A DNA stretch of 51,110 bases from Succiniclasticum ruminis DSM 9236 (lineage in GTDB: Bacteria; Bacillota; Negativicutes; Acidaminococcales; Acidaminococcaceae). Below the pieces are notes generated by a model. It was not told the origin of the DNA. It saw only the letters and a list, made by a program, of their open reading frames with translations, and did no database searches. Both the position numbers and the translations under genes were made by a program. Positions 42,167 to 51,110 of this stretch are shown here, piece after piece; the first letter of the stretch is position 1; each line of letters begins with the position of its first letter. The DNA is taken from assembly GCF_900112895.1 (NCBI RefSeq), contig NZ_FONL01000014.1:1-51110 (forward strand), given 5' to 3'.

Positions 42167-43162
42167 TTACTTTGCATTGATCCATTCCCGGATCAGCGCC
42201 TGCTTTTCCCCTGCCATCCAGCGAAGGTCATCGTTGGGAACAGTCCCGATATCGCCATACTTGTTTTTGTCATTCAGCGCATCAGCCAGCGGGTTCATCC
42301 GGTAATCACGCATAATCTGCAGCGCTTCCTTTGACAAAAGATATTCCATGAGACGCTCCGCCTCTTTACGCTTTTCCCCGTTTTTCAGGATCGCAACCGC
42401 CGTAATCATATTTTTATTCCCATCCCGCACCGGAACGGCATATAAAAACGGATGTTCCCTTTCCAGGGCCAGAGCATGACGCAGTGACATGACCGCCACT
42501 GCCTTGTTCCCAAGATACACTTCGTATCCTGCCTTTGCCTCCGTCGGCAGATACAGTACCTGCTGTGTACGCAGACTGCCCGCAAACTGCAGCGCGGCAT
42601 CCCGGCCCCGCAGCTGCCATAAAGAAGTAATCAGCCCGTAGGGCGGTCCCCCGGTCGCCGGGTCGGCCATAACGATTTCATTGTGCAGTACCGGCTGCAG
42701 CAGTTCGTCCCAGGATGACGGCGGCTCGATTCCCAGCTTCCGCATATTGTTCCGGTTGCTCAGCAATGCAATGTAGTCGATGGACAGGGGAACCCACCTT
42801 CCGTCACGGTCCATGTACTGCGGCGGAATATTGGCAGCGCCCCGGGGCAGATACGGAACCAGCATATCGCGTTCTGCCGCCATGTAATATTCCTCGGCAG
42901 AACCGCCCAGCCATACGTCCACTTTGCTGGCACCCAGCAAATCCAGGCGTTGGGATAAGGACGTCGCAACCAGGGGATCAAATTCCACTACAATCCCCGT
43001 CTTGTTGGCAAAATCCTCCATAAGGGCTTCCGAGAGATTCCGGTTCATGCTGCTGCAGACCCGGACGACTCCTTCCGCAGGCGGATCCTGTTTTTGCGAA
43101 CCGCAGCCCGCCAGAAGCAGCAGGCACAACATCGCTAAAAGTAAAACATAAAACCTTTTCAT
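42167..43162 (-). CDS. ABC transporter substrate-binding lipoprotein (iron-type), second copy
   Basis: The 331-residue protein has a lipoprotein signal with lipobox LLAGC (about 16-20) and a type 2 periplasmic-binding fold (VVRVCSSMNRNLSEALMEDF onward). It resembles the ferric ion/putrescine-type binding proteins that accompany FbpB/FbpC-like transporters. It is the last gene of the transporter cluster, but a terminator (43321-43353) and its own promoter (43305-43313) separate it from the ATPase gene. It therefore seems separately regulated. The ligand is unknown. It differs clearly from the binding protein at 46445-47497. Confidence 0.83.
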   Translation of the reverse strand: MKRFYVLLLAMLCLLLLAGCGSQKQDPPAEGVVRVCSSMNRNLSEALMEDFANKTGIVVEFDPLVATSLSQRLDLLGASKVDVWLGGSAEEYYMAAERDMLVPYLPRGAANIPPQYMDRDGRWVPLSIDYIALLSNRNNMRKLGIEPPSSWDELLQPVLHNEIVMADPATGGPPYGLITSLWQLRGRDAALQFAGSLRTQQVLYLPTEAKAGYEVYLGNKAVAVMSLRHALALEREHPFLYAVPVRDGNKNMITAVAILKNGEKRKEAERLMEYLLSKEALQIMRDYRMNPLADALNDKNKYGDIGTVPNDDLRWMAGEKQALIREWINAK

Positions 43163-43304
43163 ATCGATTTCTTAACTTTCCTAACATAAGTGTGCAACAT
43201 TACAGATGAATTGACATTTCAAACCGCAATGAGTTAACAATTTGATTACACTGCCGGATAATACTCCGCATTCCCTTACAGCGGCAATACTATCCCGTAA
43301 CAGC

Positions 43305-43313
43305 ATTATACCA
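43305..43313 (-). promoter_or_regulatory. Extended -10 promoter of the second binding protein gene
   Basis: The minus strand reads TGGTATAAT directly after the T run of the ATPase-gene terminator. No -35 consensus is seen, because that region is the terminator stem. Confidence 0.55.
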
Positions 43314-43320
43314 TAAAAAA

Positions 43321-43353
43321 CAGGGCAGTAACGTCTCTTTTGTTACTGCCCTG
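43321..43353 (-). terminator. Terminator after the ABC ATPase gene
   Basis: Perfect 12-bp arms (43321-43332 and 43342-43353) are followed on the minus strand by TTTTTT. Confidence 0.85.
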
Positions 43354-43395
43354 CTGTTATTATGGGATTGGAACTCAATAAATCATTCGCTTTCT

Positions 43396-44448
43396 TTACT
43401 CATCTTTGGCAAAGGACATCACATTATCAAAATCCAGGTACACGGTTTCCCCGTCCTTATACTTTTCGTATTCAGCGCCTTTCTGGATCACACGGACGAT
43501 GTGGTCTTTTACCTTGACCCGGTAATCCACGCTGTCGCCCATATAGAACCGATGATTCATGACGCCTTCCACCATGCCCCCGGTCTTGGAGAGGGTAATC
43601 TGTTCCGGACGAACTGCCAGTACTGCTTCCCCGACCAGTTTTTTCGGGTTCGGGAAGGAAACGCCCTCATACCCCTGCATAAAAATCCGATCGCCTTTCG
43701 CCGTAGCCGGAATAAAGTTTACCAGTCCGATAAAGTCAGCTACCATCTGGTTGGCAGGTTTTGTATAAATGTCATAAGGCCTGCCAATCTGCTGCACCTT
43801 GCCCATGCTCATAACCACAATCCGGTCAGACATGGTCATGGCCTCGCTCTGGTCATGGGTTACGTAAATGACGGTAATGCCCAGTTCTTTCTGGATGGCG
43901 GAAATTTCAAAACGCATGCTTTCCCGCAGTTTTGCATCCAGGTTGGACAAAGGTTCATCCAATAACAGCAGACTGGGTTTGGCTACCAGAGCGCGGGCCA
44001 GGGCCACGCGCTGCTGCTGCCCGCCGGACAGCTGGCTGGGCAGACGCTCCCCGTATTCTTTCAGATGAACCAGTTCCAGCATCTGCATGACCTGCTTCAG
44101 CCGTTCTTCTTTGGGCACATTCTGGATCTTCAGCGGATAGCCTACGTTATCAATTACATTCATATGGGGCCACACGGCGTAACTCTGGAACACCATGCCG
44201 ATGCCGCGTTTTTCAGGTGCCATAAAATAGCCCTTTTCCGCATTGGAGATTTCCTGATCCCCGATCATGATTACGCCTTCCGTAGGCTTTTCAAAGCCGG
44301 CGATCATTCGCAGCGTGGTAGTCTTGCCGCAGCCGGACGGACCCAGGAACGAAATAAACTCGCCGTCCGCCACTTCAATATTAAAATCCCCTACCGCAGT
44401 CACATTGCCATACCGCTTGTATATATGATGAAGCTTTAACTCTGCCAC
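43396..44448 (-). CDS. ABC transporter ATPase (FbpC/PotA type)
   Basis: Energises the transporter encoded with it. The 350-residue protein has Walker [10 protein letters not shown] (36-44), the Q-loop [10 protein letters not shown], signature LSGGQQQR (140-147), Walker B LLLLDEP (160-166) and the switch histidine H198. A C-terminal TOBE-type regulatory domain follows (about 240-350, VRPEQITLS). The start is GTG 44448, with GGAGGG 9 bases upstream. It lies 113 bases after the permease gene, and its transcript ends at 43321-43353. Confidence 0.93.
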
Positions 44449-44561
44449 GTTACTCTTCCCTCCGTTTCACAGCTTTAAATAATTCTCTCATCCGTAAGTA
44501 CCGGTGGCGCACAACGTGCCGCCTCCGGAATCTGCTCCCGTAATTCTCCGGGCAGCACTTT

Positions 44562-46241
44562 TTAAATGCTTACCTTTCCTTTCGTCACTTTATTCAGAAT
44601 AATGTTACCGATTAAAACAATCAGCAGGATGATGACCGAAAGAACGGAAGCATTCTGGGTATCCGCATAGGTCTGCAGTTCGTACAGCAGCACGCCGAGC
44701 GATTTCGTATCCGCGCCGTACAACAGGTTGGACATGGTCAATTCGTAAAAGCTGGGCATGAATATCAGGAACCAGCCCGCCACAATGGAAGGAGCAACCA
44801 GCGGCATGATGATATCCTTGCAGGTACGGATCCAGCTGGCGCCGGAACTCAGGGCCGCTTCTTCCAGGCTGATGTGCACCTGACTTAAGGACGCGGCGAT
44901 GGTACGGACGCTCATGGTCATATATTTAACGAGATAGGAAACGATCAGGATCCACATTGTGGAATACAGGTTAAGGCCATAATTCCCGGAGAATGTGACA
45001 ATCAGGGCCAGGGCGATAACGATGGAAGGGGTAGCGCCCCCCAGCACCACCAGCAGGTCCGGTATGCTGCGGCCGGTAATATTCGTCTTAACGGAAAGAT
45101 AGGCAACGAACAGGGCCAGCACAGTACCGATACAGGCGGCCACGATACCGTAACCGATGGAACGCCATACGCTTTCCATATACTGGGAACTGGTTACTAC
45201 CGGTATCCAGGCGTCAATGCCGAAATTATCCAGCGCCAGTCCCTTGGACATACTCACCAGGAACGAGGTTACAACAATGGAGGACAGCGGAAGGATCACT
45301 GCGATGAAGGCATAGCCTGCCACCACGGCAAAGGCCGGCCATTTCCATTTTCCCAGCTCCACCATGTTGGGGCGGGTACTTTTTCCGCTGATGGTAGTAT
45401 AATCTTTGTGGCTCAGCATCCAGCTCATGAACATCAGCAGGCCGTTGGCTACCACCATCATGGAAACCGCAAGGGCCGTGGCGTCACGAATGCCTTTATC
45501 GTCACCCATATACAGGAACGTAACGATACGGGTCGTCATCACTTCGATATTGCCTGGCATGCCTACGATCGCCGGAATACCGAAACAGGAAGCCGCCGCG
45601 ATGAATACCAGCAGGCCGCCGGCCACGATGGACGGCATCATCAGGGGCAGAGTCACATCCCACAGTGTTTTCAGCGGCGAAGACCCGGAAATCCGGGCCG
45701 CTTCTTCCAGGGTGGGGTCCATTTTTTCCATGGCGCGGGAGATGGTAATGAAGGCGAAGGGTGAATAGAACAACGTAAGCACCCAGGCCAGTCCGCCCAT
45801 GGTATATATATCGAAAGGCGCCTTCTGCAACCCGAAAATAAATTTAAGAAACTCATTCAGGTACCCGACGCTTGGATTCAGCAGCTGGACCCAGGCGATG
45901 GCGCCCACATATGGCGGAATCATATAACTGGCAACCAGGACCGTCCGGAAGGTTTTCTTTCCCGGCAGATCCGTACGCCCCACCAGCCAGGCCAGCGGGA
46001 ACGTAACAATAACACTGGCTACCATGACGATCAGCGAAAGCTGAATCGTATTGGTAAGGGCTTTCCAATTTACCTTTTTACCATAAACATCTTTGTAATT
46101 ACTGATATCAAACACACCGTTGATGAACAGGCTGTCGTAAATCAGCACCAGCAGGGGCATAACAATAAAATACAGCAGCAACAGCACAGAGATAGCAATT
46201 ACAATAAATTTACTATCGAGGCGGGGCAAAGATTTTTTCAC
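44562..46241 (-). CDS. ABC transporter permease, double-length (FbpB type)
   Basis: The 559-residue protein has about 12 membrane segments and two inner-membrane permease domains, each with an EAA loop (LEEAARISGSSPLKTLWDVT and LEEAALSSGASWIRTCKDII). This fused form is usual for ferric ion and some phosphonate or sulfonate importers. The start is GTG 46241, with AAAGGAG 6 bases away. A palindromic repeat (copy 3 of family A) lies just upstream, between it and the binding protein gene. The pair of EAA loops indicates a homodimer-like core served by the one ATPase. Confidence 0.92.
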   Translation of the reverse strand: MKKSLPRLDSKFIVIAISVLLLLYFIVMPLLVLIYDSLFINGVFDISNYKDVYGKKVNWKALTNTIQLSLIVMVASVIVTFPLAWLVGRTDLPGKKTFRTVLVASYMIPPYVGAIAWVQLLNPSVGYLNEFLKFIFGLQKAPFDIYTMGGLAWVLTLFYSPFAFITISRAMEKMDPTLEEAARISGSSPLKTLWDVTLPLMMPSIVAGGLLVFIAAASCFGIPAIVGMPGNIEVMTTRIVTFLYMGDDKGIRDATALAVSMMVVANGLLMFMSWMLSHKDYTTISGKSTRPNMVELGKWKWPAFAVVAGYAFIAVILPLSSIVVTSFLVSMSKGLALDNFGIDAWIPVVTSSQYMESVWRSIGYGIVAACIGTVLALFVAYLSVKTNITGRSIPDLLVVLGGATPSIVIALALIVTFSGNYGLNLYSTMWILIVSYLVKYMTMSVRTIAASLSQVHISLEEAALSSGASWIRTCKDIIMPLVAPSIVAGWFLIFMPSFYELTMSNLLYGADTKSLGVLLYELQTYADTQNASVLSVIILLIVLIGNIILNKVTKGKVSI

Positions 46242-46277
46242 TTTCGCTCCTTTCCCCGGTTCTTCCGGTGAGAGTCG

Positions 46278-46350
46278 GGAAACTACTGAGCAGTTCGTCA
46301 GAAGCTTTTCCGAAAAACAGAAATACGTCCTGAATCAGCGCTTCTTAAGG
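46278..46350. repeat. Palindromic intergenic repeat, family A, copy 3 (degenerate)
   Basis: The left end GGAAACTACTGAGCAG and the complement of the right end (AAGAAGCGCTGATTCAG) align with the tips of copies 1 and 2, with several differences. It sits in the 203-base gap between binding-protein and permease genes of one operon. Confidence 0.4.
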
Positions 46351-46444
46351 AATGGGAAATCAGGGACCGCCAAAACGGCCCCTGATCAGCTTCCTGTCAA
46401 CTCAGATTTTTATAATGTACCCGTGTAATTCTTTTGTTAAGCCG

Positions 46445-47497
46445 TTATTCCATAACATTGGTACGGAATGCTTCTTTGATTTTGCCTTCTTCAAATGCCA
46501 GTTTTTCCCAGTCGATCTTAATGGCATTCTTGTTCAGGTCAGCCAGTTTAATGCCGGCGCCGTTAGGCGGATTTACGTCGCCACGTACAGAATGCATCCA
46601 GCCGGCGGTAACGGCCTTCTGTCCTTCAGGGCTCAGCCACCAGTCAACCAGTGCTTTGGCCGCTTCCGGATTCTTGGTATCCTTGAAGATACCGATTGGC
46701 GAATTGATGATGATGCAGCCTTCTTTCGGATAGCATACAGCCAAAGGTTCTTTCTTGGTTTCCTGCAGTTTCAGGATGTTTTCTTCCAAAATAACGGCAG
46801 CCATGTATTCGCCGGTCAGCAGTTTGTTCTGGATAGCGGAGTTGCCTTCTTCCACCCGCAGGCCATTGGCTTTCAGCTTCTTGAAATAATCCCAGCCGAA
46901 TCTGGAATCGAGGGCCATGGCGCCAACCATTACATAGGCCGTACCGGACAGCATCGGGTTCGGCATGGCGATTTTGCCTTTATATTTCGGTTTTGTCAGG
47001 TCTTCCCAGCTGGTCGGAATGTCTTCTTTGGCCAGTTTATCCTTATTATAGGCGATAATCATATTGTTAACACGGACCGGCAGCCAGGCGCCGTCCGGAT
47101 CGCTTGCCAGCACAACGTCTTTAAGCTGCGGCGATTTGTAGTTCATCAGCAGGCCCTGTTTCTTCAGTGCCAGATAGTAAGACGGATCGGCAACCATCAG
47201 CACGTCCGCGCCGATCTTTTTCGCTTTGATTTCGCCGGCAATCTTGGTCTTCAGTTTTTCCGTGCCGTTCTGGAACCAGGTTACTTTCAGGTTGGGGAAC
47301 GCTTTGGAAACGTTCGGTTTGCAGAGCTTGTCCACGATATCAGGATAGATGGAAGTGTAAACGCTTACTTCTCCTGACGGACCTTTTTTCGCGTCAGCAG
47401 CCGGCGCGGCCGCTTTTTTGTCGCCGCCTCCGCAGCCTGCAGCCATCACAGCGGCCATAGCCATTAATGCAGCAGCGCCCAAAAGTTTTTTGTTCAT
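46445..47497 (-). CDS. ABC transporter substrate-binding lipoprotein (iron-type), first copy
   Basis: The 350-residue protein has a lipoprotein signal with lipobox MAAGC (C22) and a short Ala/Lys linker. The binding fold starts at GEVSVYTSIYPDIV. VNNMIIAYNKDKL and TSWEDLTKPKYKGKIAMPNP are typical of AfuA/FbpA-like and related anion-binding proteins. Ferric ion is the commonest ligand for this transporter type, but phosphonates or sugar phosphates are possible. AAGGAG lies 8 bases before the ATG. It is the first gene of the operon, consistent with high expression of the binding protein. The promoter region carries a palindrome at 47684-47694. Confidence 0.87.
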   Translation of the reverse strand: MNKKLLGAAALMAMAAVMAAGCGGGDKKAAAPAADAKKGPSGEVSVYTSIYPDIVDKLCKPNVSKAFPNLKVTWFQNGTEKLKTKIAGEIKAKKIGADVLMVADPSYYLALKKQGLLMNYKSPQLKDVVLASDPDGAWLPVRVNNMIIAYNKDKLAKEDIPTSWEDLTKPKYKGKIAMPNPMLSGTAYVMVGAMALDSRFGWDYFKKLKANGLRVEEGNSAIQNKLLTGEYMAAVILEENILKLQETKKEPLAVCYPKEGCIIINSPIGIFKDTKNPEAAKALVDWWLSPEGQKAVTAGWMHSVRGDVNPPNGAGIKLADLNKNAIKIDWEKLAFEEGKIKEAFRTNVME

Positions 47498-49049: not shown

Positions 49050-49442
49050 ATGGTGCTTCTGGAATCCGGTGAGAACTACCTGGAAACGATACTGATACTG
49101 CAACAGCGTAACGGTAACGTCCGCTCCATCGACATCGCCACTGAAATGAATTTTTCCAAGCCCAGCGTATCCCGTGCCATGAGTATCCTGAAAAAAAGCG
49201 GTTATATCATTATGGAACCCGACGGGCGGATCGTGCTGACGGAAAACGGCCTGAAAAAAGCGGCCTCGGTTCTGGATAGACATAAAACGCTCACTGTCTT
49301 CCTTTCAGAAATCCTGAATGTTCCCCAGGACATTGCGGAAAAAGATGCCTGCCGGATTGAACATATCATCAGCCCCGTAACCTTCGCCGGCATTAAAAAA
49401 ATGGTAGCGGACCAAAAGAAGAAATCTTCTTCTGCAAAGTAG
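49050..49442 (+). CDS. DtxR/MntR-family metal-dependent regulator
   Basis: The 130-residue protein has a winged helix (HTH about 23-48, SIDIATEMNFSKPSVSRAMS) and a short dimer/metal domain. It lacks the C-terminal SH3-like domain of full DtxR, as MntR does. Probable metal ligands are E12, H78, C101, E104 and H105. The cysteine in DACRIEH corresponds to the DtxR/IdeR iron site rather than the glutamate of MntR, so iron sensing is plausible. It probably represses metal uptake genes. It lies between the FkbM gene and the exported chelatase, near an iron-type ABC transporter. A 16-bp terminator stem follows it. Confidence 0.87.
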   Translation: MVLLESGENYLETILILQQRNGNVRSIDIATEMNFSKPSVSRAMSILKKSGYIIMEPDGRIVLTENGLKKAASVLDRHKTLTVFLSEILNVPQDIAEKDACRIEHIISPVTFAGIKKMVADQKKKSSSAK

Positions 49443-49469
49443 TACTTTATTTAACATACTGTCCTGCAG

Positions 49470-49518
49470 AACTGCAGGGAAACAGATTCATACTGTTTCC
49501 CTGCAGTTTTTGTTTTTT
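49470..49518 (+). terminator. Terminator of the DtxR-family gene
   Basis: A perfect 16-bp stem (49470-49485 and 49493-49508) is followed by a long T-rich run. Confidence 0.92.
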
Positions 49519-49549
49519 ATCTGTAATAAGGTTGTTCCTTAAAAATTTT

Positions 49550-49566
49550 TGATTTTATTAATATCA
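49550..49566. promoter_or_regulatory. Candidate operator upstream of the exported chelatase gene
   Basis: TGATTTTATTAATATCA is a 17-base palindrome with 14 of 17 positions symmetric. It lies 13 bases before the -35 of the chelatase promoter and just after the DtxR-type gene. Binding by that regulator is inference. Confidence 0.4.
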
Positions 49567-49579
49567 TTTACTATTAGTA

Positions 49580-49608
49580 TTGCTTTTTTACTTAAAAAGA
49601 TTTATAAT
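49580..49608 (+). promoter_or_regulatory. Promoter of the exported CbiK-like gene
   Basis: TTGCTT and TATAAT are separated by 17 bases, leaving a leader of about 100 bases. No cobalamin riboswitch is recognised in that leader. Confidence 0.6.
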
Positions 49609-49715
49609 TTCATTAACCTTAGACCGCAAAACTGTGACTTTCCTGGTTCGCAGATTTGCCGGCCGCAATAAAATACCTTTATTTAAAATTTTTAAAACGA
49701 GAGAGGTAATGCAAA

Positions 49716-50738
49716 ATGAAAAAGTTTGGCAAAATGTTAACTGCCGCTGCGCTGGCAGCAAGCTGCCTGGCTATCTCCATCCCCGGTTACGCTGCTTACA
49801 GCCTGAGCGAAGAAGTAAAAGCTCCGACCCCTGCCTTAAAGCAGGCTTCTGAAATCGGCGTTCGCTCTTACAGCAACCCCGCCTTGCAGAATCTGCCTGA
49901 CAAAGACGCTATGGTAGTTATGTCTTTCGGCACCACCATGAAAGAAACCCGCGACAAAACCATCAACCCGACCATCGATGCCATTAAGGCAGCGCTGCCC
50001 GGCGTAAAAGTGGTTACCGCCTACACCTCCCATATCATCATCGACCGTGTAAAAGCCAATGAAGGTCTGGAAATCCCCACTCCGGAAAAAGCCCTGGAAC
50101 AGCTGAAGGCTGAAGGCTATACCCGCATCGCCCTGGCCACACTGGACGTAATCCCCGGTATGGAATACGAATACAAGACTGCTATCTACCGTCTGTATCG
50201 CGATAACTTCAAGAAAATGACTTTCGGCACCCCGCTGCTGTACTGGCAGGGTCAGGAAGAACAGCCGGACGATGTAAAAGATTTCGCAGAAGCCATGTCG
50301 ACCCAGTTCCCGAAATTAGGCAAAGCAGACGCTGTTCTGGTTATGGCCCACGGCACGCCCCATCCGTCCAACGCTTACTACTCCGTAGTACAGGACCGCT
50401 TCAACAGCCTGAACAAAGGCAACATCCATGTTTACAGCGTTGAAGGCTGGCCTTCCCTGGGTGACGTAATTCCGAAACTGAAAGCGGAAAAAGTTAAAAA
50501 CGTAACCCTGATGCCCATGATGATGGTTGCCGGTGACCATGCCAACAACGATATGGCTGGCGATGAAGAAGATTCCCATAAATCCATTCTGCAAAAAGAA
50601 GGCTTCAAGGTAACTCCGTACATCCATGGCCTGGGCGAAAACGCCGCAGTTCAGAAGATGTTCGTTGCCCATGCTCTGGAAAGCTGGAATGCATTAAAAG
50701 GCGAAGCCAAAGAACAGAGCACCGGCATGCAGCATTGA
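49716..50738 (+). CDS. Exported CbiK-type sirohydrochlorin chelatase
   Basis: CbiK inserts cobalt (or iron) into sirohydrochlorin in anaerobic B12 synthesis. The 340-residue protein has the family core: VVMSFGTT, VVTAYTSHIIIDRV, the first metal histidine H212 in VMAHGTPHPSN and the second H275 in VAGDHANNDMAGDEEDS. It also carries a clear signal peptide (1-27, KKFGKMLTAAALAASC...GYAA), so it acts outside the cytoplasm. Exported forms are known, such as the periplasmic CbiK of Desulfovibrio vulgaris, and a role in haem or metal handling has been suggested. No other cobalamin genes are here; the neighbours are a DtxR-type regulator and an iron-type transporter. GAGAGG lies 8 bases before the ATG. 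Confidence 0.9.
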   Translation: MKKFGKMLTAAALAASCLAISIPGYAAYSLSEEVKAPTPALKQASEIGVRSYSNPALQNLPDKDAMVVMSFGTTMKETRDKTINPTIDAIKAALPGVKVVTAYTSHIIIDRVKANEGLEIPTPEKALEQLKAEGYTRIALATLDVIPGMEYEYKTAIYRLYRDNFKKMTFGTPLLYWQGQEEQPDDVKDFAEAMSTQFPKLGKADAVLVMAHGTPHPSNAYYSVVQDRFNSLNKGNIHVYSVEGWPSLGDVIPKLKAEKVKNVTLMPMMMVAGDHANNDMAGDEEDSHKSILQKEGFKVTPYIHGLGENAAVQKMFVAHALESWNALKGEAKEQSTGMQH

Positions 50739-50877: not shown

Positions 50878-51110
50878 CTACTTGCTACCCTTAAAAGGGT
50901 CTTCGTATTCTTTACTGAATAACGAATCTTCCATTTGATCCATCTTATCCTGTTCCCGGATATATTTCTGTATGGTTTGCGCATTCAGCCCTACCGTACT
51001 AACGTAATATCCGGTTGCCCAGAATTTTCGATTTCCAAATTTATATTTCAGATTCGCATGTCGTTCAAATATCATCAGTGAACTTTTTCCCTTTAGATAC
51101 CCCATGATAT
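50878..51110 (-). CDS. tnpA: IS200/IS605-family transposase TnpA, C-terminal part (cut by window end)
   Basis: The last 77 or so residues of a Y1 transposase are encoded, from the window edge to TAA at 50878. MGYLKGKSSLMIFERHANLK and the following FGNRKFWATGYYVSTVG are highly typical of the region near the catalytic tyrosine (GYYVSTVG). The 5' part lies beyond the window. Orientation is the same as the fragment at 1-142. Confidence 0.92.
   Translation of the reverse strand, partial: IMGYLKGKSSLMIFERHANLKYKFGNRKFWATGYYVSTVGLNAQTIQKYIREQDKMDQMEDSLFSKEYEDPFKGSK

What the first reader, a model, noticed from the sequence alone, without database searches (positions are those of the whole stretch)
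49050..50738. Exported cobaltochelatase-like CbiK beside a DtxR-type regulator, with iron-type ABC genes nearby
A CbiK with a clear signal peptide and both metal histidines stands without any other B12 synthesis gene. It follows a metal-responsive regulator whose ligand set looks iron-type, and an iron-type transporter with two binding proteins lies just upstream. This points to an extracytoplasmic metal or tetrapyrrole handling system rather than cobalamin synthesis.
Basis: partly seen in the sequence, partly recalled or inferred. Interest (0 to 1): 0.66.

Follow-up and report, generated by a model that had tools for sequence, protein, structure and literature searches.

The report
Exported cobalt chelatase of B12 makers
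This rumen bacterium makes a vitamin B12 cobalt-inserting type of enzyme with an export signal, so it should work outside the cell's inner membrane; most relatives examined carry the same gene under predicted vitamin B12 control, which points to cobalt and B12 rather than to iron or haem.

Summary
The CbiK gene is real. It has a clear signal peptide and both catalytic histidines. A DtxR-type regulator lies 273 bases upstream, but a terminator-like hairpin separates them. The genome carries an anaerobic cbi cluster on another contig, yet no CbiX; its only two CbiK are both exported. Of 252 genomes of its class, 180 carry the exported type (by an E-value cut-off I set) and 179 of those have CbiD. 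Outside the Acidaminococcaceae group, 48 of 62 exported cbiK genes have a cobalamin-riboswitch motif upstream; Rfam found the riboswitch in 9 of 9 chosen loci. CbiL, FecBCD, ABC-2 or ABC-3 genes adjoin some of them. Fourteen of 30 chosen genomes, seven of one contig, have CbiD, one CbiK (exported) and no CbiX. In the window's group a conserved promoter element stands in place of the riboswitch; its exact core occurs twice in the genome, at both cbiK copies. Best reading: an extracytoplasmic chelatase of the Desulfovibrio CbiKP kind serving cobalt/B12. Whether cobalt is inserted outside the cytoplasm is untested; CobN homologues and a CysG-type protein leave other routes open.

The parts
49716..50738 (+). 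exported CbiK (class II chelatase), 340 aa; residues H212 (50349-50351), H275 (50538-50540), E150 (50163-50165)
   Evidence: PF06180 1.4e-80; PDB and fold matches; invariant residues
49716..49796 (+). signal peptide, residues 1-27, inferred cleavage before Y28
   Evidence: read by eye; same form in the alignment and in all 30 loci
49569..49585 (+). conserved promoter element TACTATTAGTA followed by TTGCTT (weak -35, 3 of 6 to consensus)
   Evidence: footprint read from alignments of the same group; 12-base core at <=1 mismatch in 15 of 19 related Acidaminococcaceae rows; exact core only at the two cbiK copies in the genome
49603..49608 (+). TATAAT, candidate -10, 17 bases after TTGCTT
   Evidence: conserved in the alignment; not listed by the promoter scan
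49468..49510 (+). terminator-like hairpin between dtxR and cbiK
49050..49442 (+). DtxR/MntR-type regulator, 130 aa
   Evidence: PF02742, PF01325; upstream of cbiK in 9 of 80 related loci; alignment
50878..51110 (-). C-terminal part of an IS200-type transposase, cut by the contig end
   Evidence: PF01797; the window is contig C36, 51110 bases

Best explanation
The gene encodes an exported class II cobalt chelatase, of the kind known from Desulfovibrio as CbiKP, that belongs to the cobalt/B12 system of its class. Shown by sequence: export signal, intact catalytic residues, co-occurrence with the anaerobic B12 pathway, predicted B12-riboswitch control in most relatives outside its own family. Inferred: outside the cytoplasm it captures Co(II) and either inserts it into sirohydrochlorin or presents cobalt (or a cobalt tetrapyrrole) to ABC importers such as those encoded beside it in some relatives. 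In the window's group the riboswitch is absent and another promoter element is shared by both cbiK copies; the neighbouring DtxR-type protein is a candidate, not a shown, regulator.
For: 179 of 180 genomes with the exported type (best E below 1e-130, my cut-off) have CbiD; of 20 CbiD-less genomes one has it. Riboswitch motif in 48 of 62 rows outside the Acidaminococcaceae group; Rfam RF00174 in 9 of 9 chosen loci, 7 directly upstream of cbiK. Own genome: cbi cluster on C31 behind a cobalamin riboswitch, no CbiX, exactly two CbiK, both with signal peptides. Fourteen of the 30 genomes (G032, 083, 085, 087, 089, 091, 093, 094, 095, 201, 210, 211, 214, 217; seven of one contig) have CbiD, one PF06180 match, no CbiX and a signal peptide at that gene. 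Exported-type sequences form one clade, 37 of 37, support 0.93. No ribosome site at the internal start candidate.
Against: No activity or location data. Two CbiD genomes (G016, G060) have neither CbiK nor strong CbiX, so another way to metalate may exist. Own genome has three CobN homologues, one with ChlI and ChlD, and a CysG-type precorrin-2 dehydrogenase; CobN was not counted in the other genomes. No sirohydrochlorin exporter is known to me. 14 of 62 rows outside the group lack the riboswitch motif, and in the window's group neither riboswitch nor CbiL adjoins cbiK. Some close homologues have no signal peptide.
Confidence: 0.55

Rival explanations
1. Iron or haem acquisition: an exported CbiK relative like FetB/IhtB, or like the haem-binding side of CbiKP, takes haem or removes its iron.
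For: FetB is the third-best solved relative; IhtB is thought to strip haem iron (PMC10913741, passage). DtxR-type neighbour. IsdE is the best, sub-cut-off model for three FecB proteins encoded near exported cbiK and for the one after CobN on C37. CobN-type genes follow cbiK in L015 and L016. A ferritin-like gene precedes cbiK in four Megasphaera loci (L027, L028, L035, L037, Pfam on L028), and a rubrerythrin gene lies beside the C21 copy (by reading).
Against: Riboswitches and the near-complete tie to CbiD. The residues recalled as haem ligands of CbiKP (H96, H103) fall on E152 and on a gap in the alignment (ligand identity recalled; the chain positions 96 and 103 do carry His in that alignment).
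Confidence: 0.15
2. Non-catalytic cobalt or tetrapyrrole binding protein for neighbouring ABC importers; cobalt is inserted in the cytoplasm by the CysG-type dehydrogenase or another enzyme.
For: In 12 of 81 rows an ABC-3 permease shares the cbiK run; the run genes examined there, representatives only, include no binding protein. Class II chelatases and such binding proteins share a fold class (recalled). CysG-type protein present. G016 and G060 have CbiD with neither CbiK nor strong CbiX.
Against: H212, H275 and E150 are invariant in the alignment, which binding alone might not require.
Confidence: 0.22
3. The protein is exported by sequence, but a cytoplasmic form made from an internal start does the B12 step.
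For: A Met or Leu lies six residues before the CbiK domain in many relatives; in the window the codon is TTG.
Against: 49 internal ATG codons there average -0.28 kcal/mol against the anti-SD, and 22 of 81 genes have no start codon there.
Confidence: 0.04

Closest known systems
Desulfovibrio vulgaris CbiKP (PDB 2xvx, 2xvz), periplasmic cobaltochelatase
   Same: fold (TM 0.92 by target length), export, catalytic histidines; in Desulfovibrio a B12 element controls cbiK-cbiL and btuCDF (PMC545781, passages), a gene set like that of Pectinatus and several Selenomonas ruminantium loci here
   Different: 34% identity; the recalled haem-ligand histidines absent; D. vulgaris also has a cytoplasmic CbiK (recalled), this genome has none
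Salmonella CbiK (PDB 1qgo)
   Same: fold and catalytic residues
   Different: cytoplasmic (recalled); 36% identity; the match covers only residues 63-327 of the window protein, so it lacks the signal peptide and the extension after it
Porphyromonas gingivalis FetB (PDB 9b86); IhtB is, as I recall, another name for it
   Same: CbiK homologue bound to haem uptake (33% identity)
   Different: IhtB is described as a lipoprotein of a haem/iron system (PMC10913741, passage); here no cysteine at the cleavage site and a B12-linked distribution
DtxR/MntR regulators
   Same: both Pfam domains over gathering score
   Different: mixed ligand set (numbering recalled); at 130 aa no room for the C-terminal SH3-like domain (recalled)

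Membership tests
CbiK (PF06180) | profile match over the gathering score, full domain | tested here: met
   270.9 bits against 26.2, profile 2-259 of 262
CbiK (PF06180) | two catalytic histidines in the C-terminal half | tested here: met
   H212, H275 invariant in 26 sequences; role from passages of PMC4063343 and PMC7689651
NCBIfam SiroCoChCbiK equivalog (NF047852) | score over the curated cut-off | tested here: not met
   223 against 400 bits: not filed as this equivalog
CbiKP-type periplasmic cobaltochelatase | signal peptide | tested here: met
   read from the sequence, same form in relatives; no prediction program or experiment
CbiKP-type periplasmic cobaltochelatase | B12-controlled operon with cbiL and BtuCDF-type genes | tested here: inconclusive
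   seen in some relatives, not at the window copy
CbiKP-type periplasmic cobaltochelatase | haem bound through H96 and H103 (ligands recalled) | tested here: inconclusive
   E152 and a gap at these places in the alignment; the ligands themselves could not be checked, the papers are not held
CbiKP-type periplasmic cobaltochelatase | Co(II) insertion into sirohydrochlorin | not testable with these tools
   needs purified protein
FetB/IhtB | lipoprotein signal | tested here: not met
   no cysteine at the cleavage site (sequence)
FetB/IhtB | locus with a haem TonB receptor | tested here: inconclusive
   none in the window's last 11 kb; the contig ends after cbiK; TonB receptors adjoin exported cbiK in L082
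DtxR family | N-terminal DNA-binding and metal-binding/dimerisation domains | tested here: met
   PF01325 45.9 bits, PF02742 58.9 bits
DtxR family | metal specificity | not testable with these tools
   ligand set mixed

The most novel reading that the evidence does not exclude
The cobalt-insertion step of B12 synthesis has moved out of the cytoplasm in these bacteria: an ABC-2 exporter releases sirohydrochlorin, which acts as a cobalt carrier; exported CbiK loads it with Co(II); a FecBCD or ABC-3 importer (with TonB/ExbBD in Anaerovibrio) brings cobalt-sirohydrochlorin back to CbiL. This would explain B12 makers with no other class II chelatase, why ABC-2, importer or CbiL genes adjoin exported cbiK in some genomes, and why many lack CbiM.
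Probability: 0.15. Interest if true: 0.87.

Novelty: new variant of a known kind. Interest (0 to 1): 0.52.

Why it matters
CbiK is treated as the cytoplasmic cobalt-insertion enzyme of anaerobic B12 synthesis. Here this genome, and fourteen of 30 chosen genomes of its class, have the B12 marker CbiD but no CbiK or CbiX other than an exported CbiK. Either a step of B12 synthesis happens outside the cytoplasm, or exported chelatases serve as cobalt binding proteins and another enzyme inserts cobalt. Both would change how cobalt supply to B12 is modelled, and both can be tested directly.

Tried and rejected
Iron/haem role as the main reading: weakened by riboswitches and CbiD co-occurrence, not excluded. 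Dual start giving a cytoplasmic form: rejected; note that my start choice itself favoured a good ribosome site, so the -8.95 kcal/mol mean of the chosen starts is biased; the argument rests on the unbiased internal sites. DtxR box: the dtxR upstream alignment shows no copy of the cbiK element, and that element is not enriched genome-wide at one mismatch (4 matches against 20 for the reversed control), so what binds it is unknown. 'Only chelatase in the genome': I first held this, then found three CobN homologues and narrowed the claim to CbiK and CbiX. CobN was not counted across the class. CbiM: exported-type genomes have it less often (53 of 179 against 37 of 51; by genus 19 of 49 against 21 of 30, Fisher 0.01), weak support, confounded by kinship. 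Genus g42 is not among the exported-only genomes: in several of its genomes CbiX-like hits lie in ORFs other than the exported CbiK. Signal-less homologues: L024, L025, L026, L031, G212 and perhaps G207 and G012; L024, L025, L031 also lack the promoter element, L026 keeps it. Gene calls around related loci come from my own codon-based picker, which misses or merges some genes; cluster names rest on family scans of one or two members.

Literature: the listings and the 15 of 3,946 papers listed show no title on exported CbiK in Negativicutes. One CbiKP paper was asked for and is not held; Lobo 2017 was seen only as a reference entry. No paper was read whole; passages only.

Full report
What is there. 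The window is the whole of contig C36 of a 2.54 Mb genome in 39 contigs, 98% complete; its nearest named relative at this locus is Succiniclasticum RUG14664, 98% identical (L011). The ORF at 49716-50738 is a CbiK. An AlphaFold model from an alignment of 27 sequences (pLDDT 83.4, pTM 0.79) matches Salmonella CbiK 1qgo, D. vulgaris CbiKP 2xvz/2xvx and FetB 9b86 best. The equivalents of Salmonella His145 and His207, whose role I took from passages of PMC4063343 and PMC7689651, are H212 and H275; both are invariant in 26 aligned sequences, as is E150, the equivalent of E89 (role of E89 recalled).

Export. The signal peptide keeps its form across the family, and the genes of all 30 further loci shown start with one; this was judged by eye. 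Could a cytoplasmic form arise from a start just before the CbiK domain? In 81 related genes the chosen starts average -8.95 kcal/mol against the anti-SD (the choice favoured good sites), ATG codons inside the genes -1.3; 49 ATG codons at the internal place average -0.28, and 22 of 81 genes have no start codon there. I reject that idea. Some homologues lack the signal: L024, L025, L026, L031 by my start choice, G212, perhaps G207 and G012. G023, G038 and G010 carry an exported CbiK beside a signal-less one. In a midpoint-rooted tree the 37 exported-type sequences, labelled by identity and including three signal-less ones, form one clade (support 0.93), apart from nine signal-less CbiK of the same class. 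The window copy and the C21 copy come from a duplication within the group.

Is it tied to B12 or to iron? The own genome has cbiD, L, F, G, H, J, ET, A, B and a cobD-like gene on contig C31 (L091; names from my reading of the translations, TP-methylases, CbiD), with a cobalamin riboswitch just before cbiD (C31:14815). It has no CbiX and exactly two CbiK; the second (C21:53520, L003) is also exported. In 252 genomes of the class (at least 90% complete), the exported-family profile matches 227 and CbiD 232. Counting best E below 1e-130 as the exported type, a threshold I set, 180 genomes have it and 179 of these have CbiD; 20 genomes lack CbiD, and one of them (G134, 92% complete) has the exported type. 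230 of 232 CbiD genomes have a CbiK or a strong CbiX match; G016 and G060 have neither (from lists typed off the tables). Strong CbiX (E 1e-20 or better) occurs in 10 genomes; most other CbiX hits are weak or partial.

Exported-only genomes. re-examined 52 genomes with one match: 49 cover the profile from positions 1-3 to 328-329; G012, G207 and G212 do not. Of the 30 genomes given to PF06180, fourteen have one CbiK, CbiD, no CbiX (by absence from the 192 matched rows or listed as without) and a visible signal peptide at that gene: G032, G083, G085, G087, G089, G091, G093, G094, G095, G201, G210, G211, G214, G217; seven are single contigs (G083, G091, G093, G095, G201, G210, G217). The riboswitch motif is upstream in 11 of the 14, not in G032, G085, G201. 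Four of the 30 (G009, G014, G021, G041) have a single CbiK that is not of the exported type by score.

Riboswitch and neighbours. In the 80 related loci plus the C21 copy (81 exported-type rows), the core motif of the cobalamin riboswitch (at most 3 mismatches in 16 bases within 600 bases upstream) is present in 48 of 62 rows outside the Acidaminococcaceae group and in 0 of 19 inside it; of the best of 20 shuffles per row, three rows reached 3 or fewer. Rfam RF00174 was found in 9 of 9 loci, chosen partly because such strings were already visible: directly upstream of cbiK in seven, and at the head of a TonB-receptor, FecBCD, cbiK, cbiD, cbiL stretch in L034 and L069 (CbiD and CbiL of L034, receptor cluster). 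Same-strand runs with cbiK contain an ABC-2 permease in 19 of 81 rows, FecCD in 14, ABC-3 in 12, CbiL-like in 11, ExbB in 7 and CobN in 2. In Anaerovibrio (for example L046, L053) the run is cbiK, ExbB, ExbD, TonB, ABC-2 pair, ABC-3 pair, with a riboswitch in front and no binding protein; glycyl-tRNA synthetase follows in L046. Many rows have none of these neighbours: the operon is not uniform, and in four Megasphaera loci a ferritin-like gene lies upstream. The literature reports the same pairing of a B12 element with cbiK-cbiL and btuCDF in Desulfovibrio (PMC545781, passages) and a cobalamin riboswitch at cbiKP in Oleidesulfovibrio (PMC11124144, passage).

The window's own control region. 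No riboswitch is present in the window. A terminator-like hairpin follows the DtxR-type gene. Upstream of cbiK the alignment of the window with seven loci shows CTATTAGTATTGC, then TATAAT 17 bases after TTGCTT; a second alignment of the C21-copy type shows the same. Fifteen of 19 related Acidaminococcaceae rows keep the 12-base core with at most one mismatch; the core was read from these same rows. None of the 62 others has fewer than three mismatches on the forward strand; one has two on the reverse strand. In the own genome the exact core occurs only at the two cbiK copies; at one mismatch there are 4 matches against 20 for the reversed control, so only the exact pair is telling. The -35 match is weak (3 of 6) and the promoter scan did not list it. 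The DtxR-type gene is found upstream in 9 of 80 related loci, only in this group. Whether it acts on cbiK is unknown.

CobN. The own genome has three CobN homologues. One, on C37, is followed by ChlI, ChlD, an ABC-2 pair, an IsdE/BtuF-like binding protein (below cut-off), a FecCD-type permease and an ATPase. In L015 and L016 exported cbiK is followed by CobN and ChlI-type genes, and in L066 by the ABC-2 pair and FecBCD. C36 ends in the C-terminal half of an IS200 transposase; the start of C37 reads like the other half on the same strand (my reading), so the two contigs may adjoin. This is not shown; such elements are repeated. CobN-type proteins may remove or insert metals, so haem is not excluded.

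How it may work. Most likely it is an extracytoplasmic cobaltochelatase serving cobalt supply for B12. The boldest version is a loop in which sirohydrochlorin leaves, is loaded by CbiK and returns to CbiL. The leaving step is pure inference. Fewer exported-type genomes have CbiM (53 of 179 against 37 of 51), but kinship weakens this (genus level 19 of 49 against 21 of 30, p 0.01), and PF01891 also detects nickel transporters (recalled). The haem reading keeps some weight through FetB and IhtB, but the residues I recall as the haem ligands of CbiKP fall on E152 and a gap here.

Verdict.

Noticed in passing
L003:8521-9543 (G000:C21): A second exported cbiK in the same genome, with the same promoter element, near a rubrerythrin gene and a His-rich P-type ATPase (by reading); further on, methylmalonyl-CoA mutase genes behind a cobalamin riboswitch (C21:56438).
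   Followed up: partly
L153, L154, L156 (G000 contigs C37, C27): Three CobN homologues, two with ChlI/ChlD-type genes nearby by reading (family-tested only on C37), in regions with FecBCD, TonB-receptor or other ABC genes; possible metal-tetrapyrrole handling loci in an anaerobe with an early-cobalt B12 pathway.
   Followed up: partly
L155:5319-7508 and riboswitch C27:393680-393842: A TonB-dependent receptor of the siderophore type (below cut-off) directly behind a cobalamin riboswitch, perhaps a corrinoid receptor.
   Followed up: no
L024, L025, L026, L031: Relatives of the C21 copy that seem to have lost the signal peptide; L024, L025 and L031 also lack the shared promoter element, L026 keeps it.
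   Followed up: partly
L145, L146 (G235, G245, grouping with Veillonella magna L050 in the tree): Three CbiK-type genes side by side: one exported, divergently transcribed from two signal-less ones, one of which is very divergent (about 20-24% identity).
   Followed up: no
window 42167-47497: ABC transporter with a fused two-domain permease and two binding proteins, best models 2-aminoethylphosphonate-type but below cut-off; substrate unresolved.
   Followed up: partly
G016, G060: Genomes with CbiD but neither CbiK nor strong CbiX match: B12 makers with no known class II chelatase, or gaps in the assemblies.
   Followed up: no
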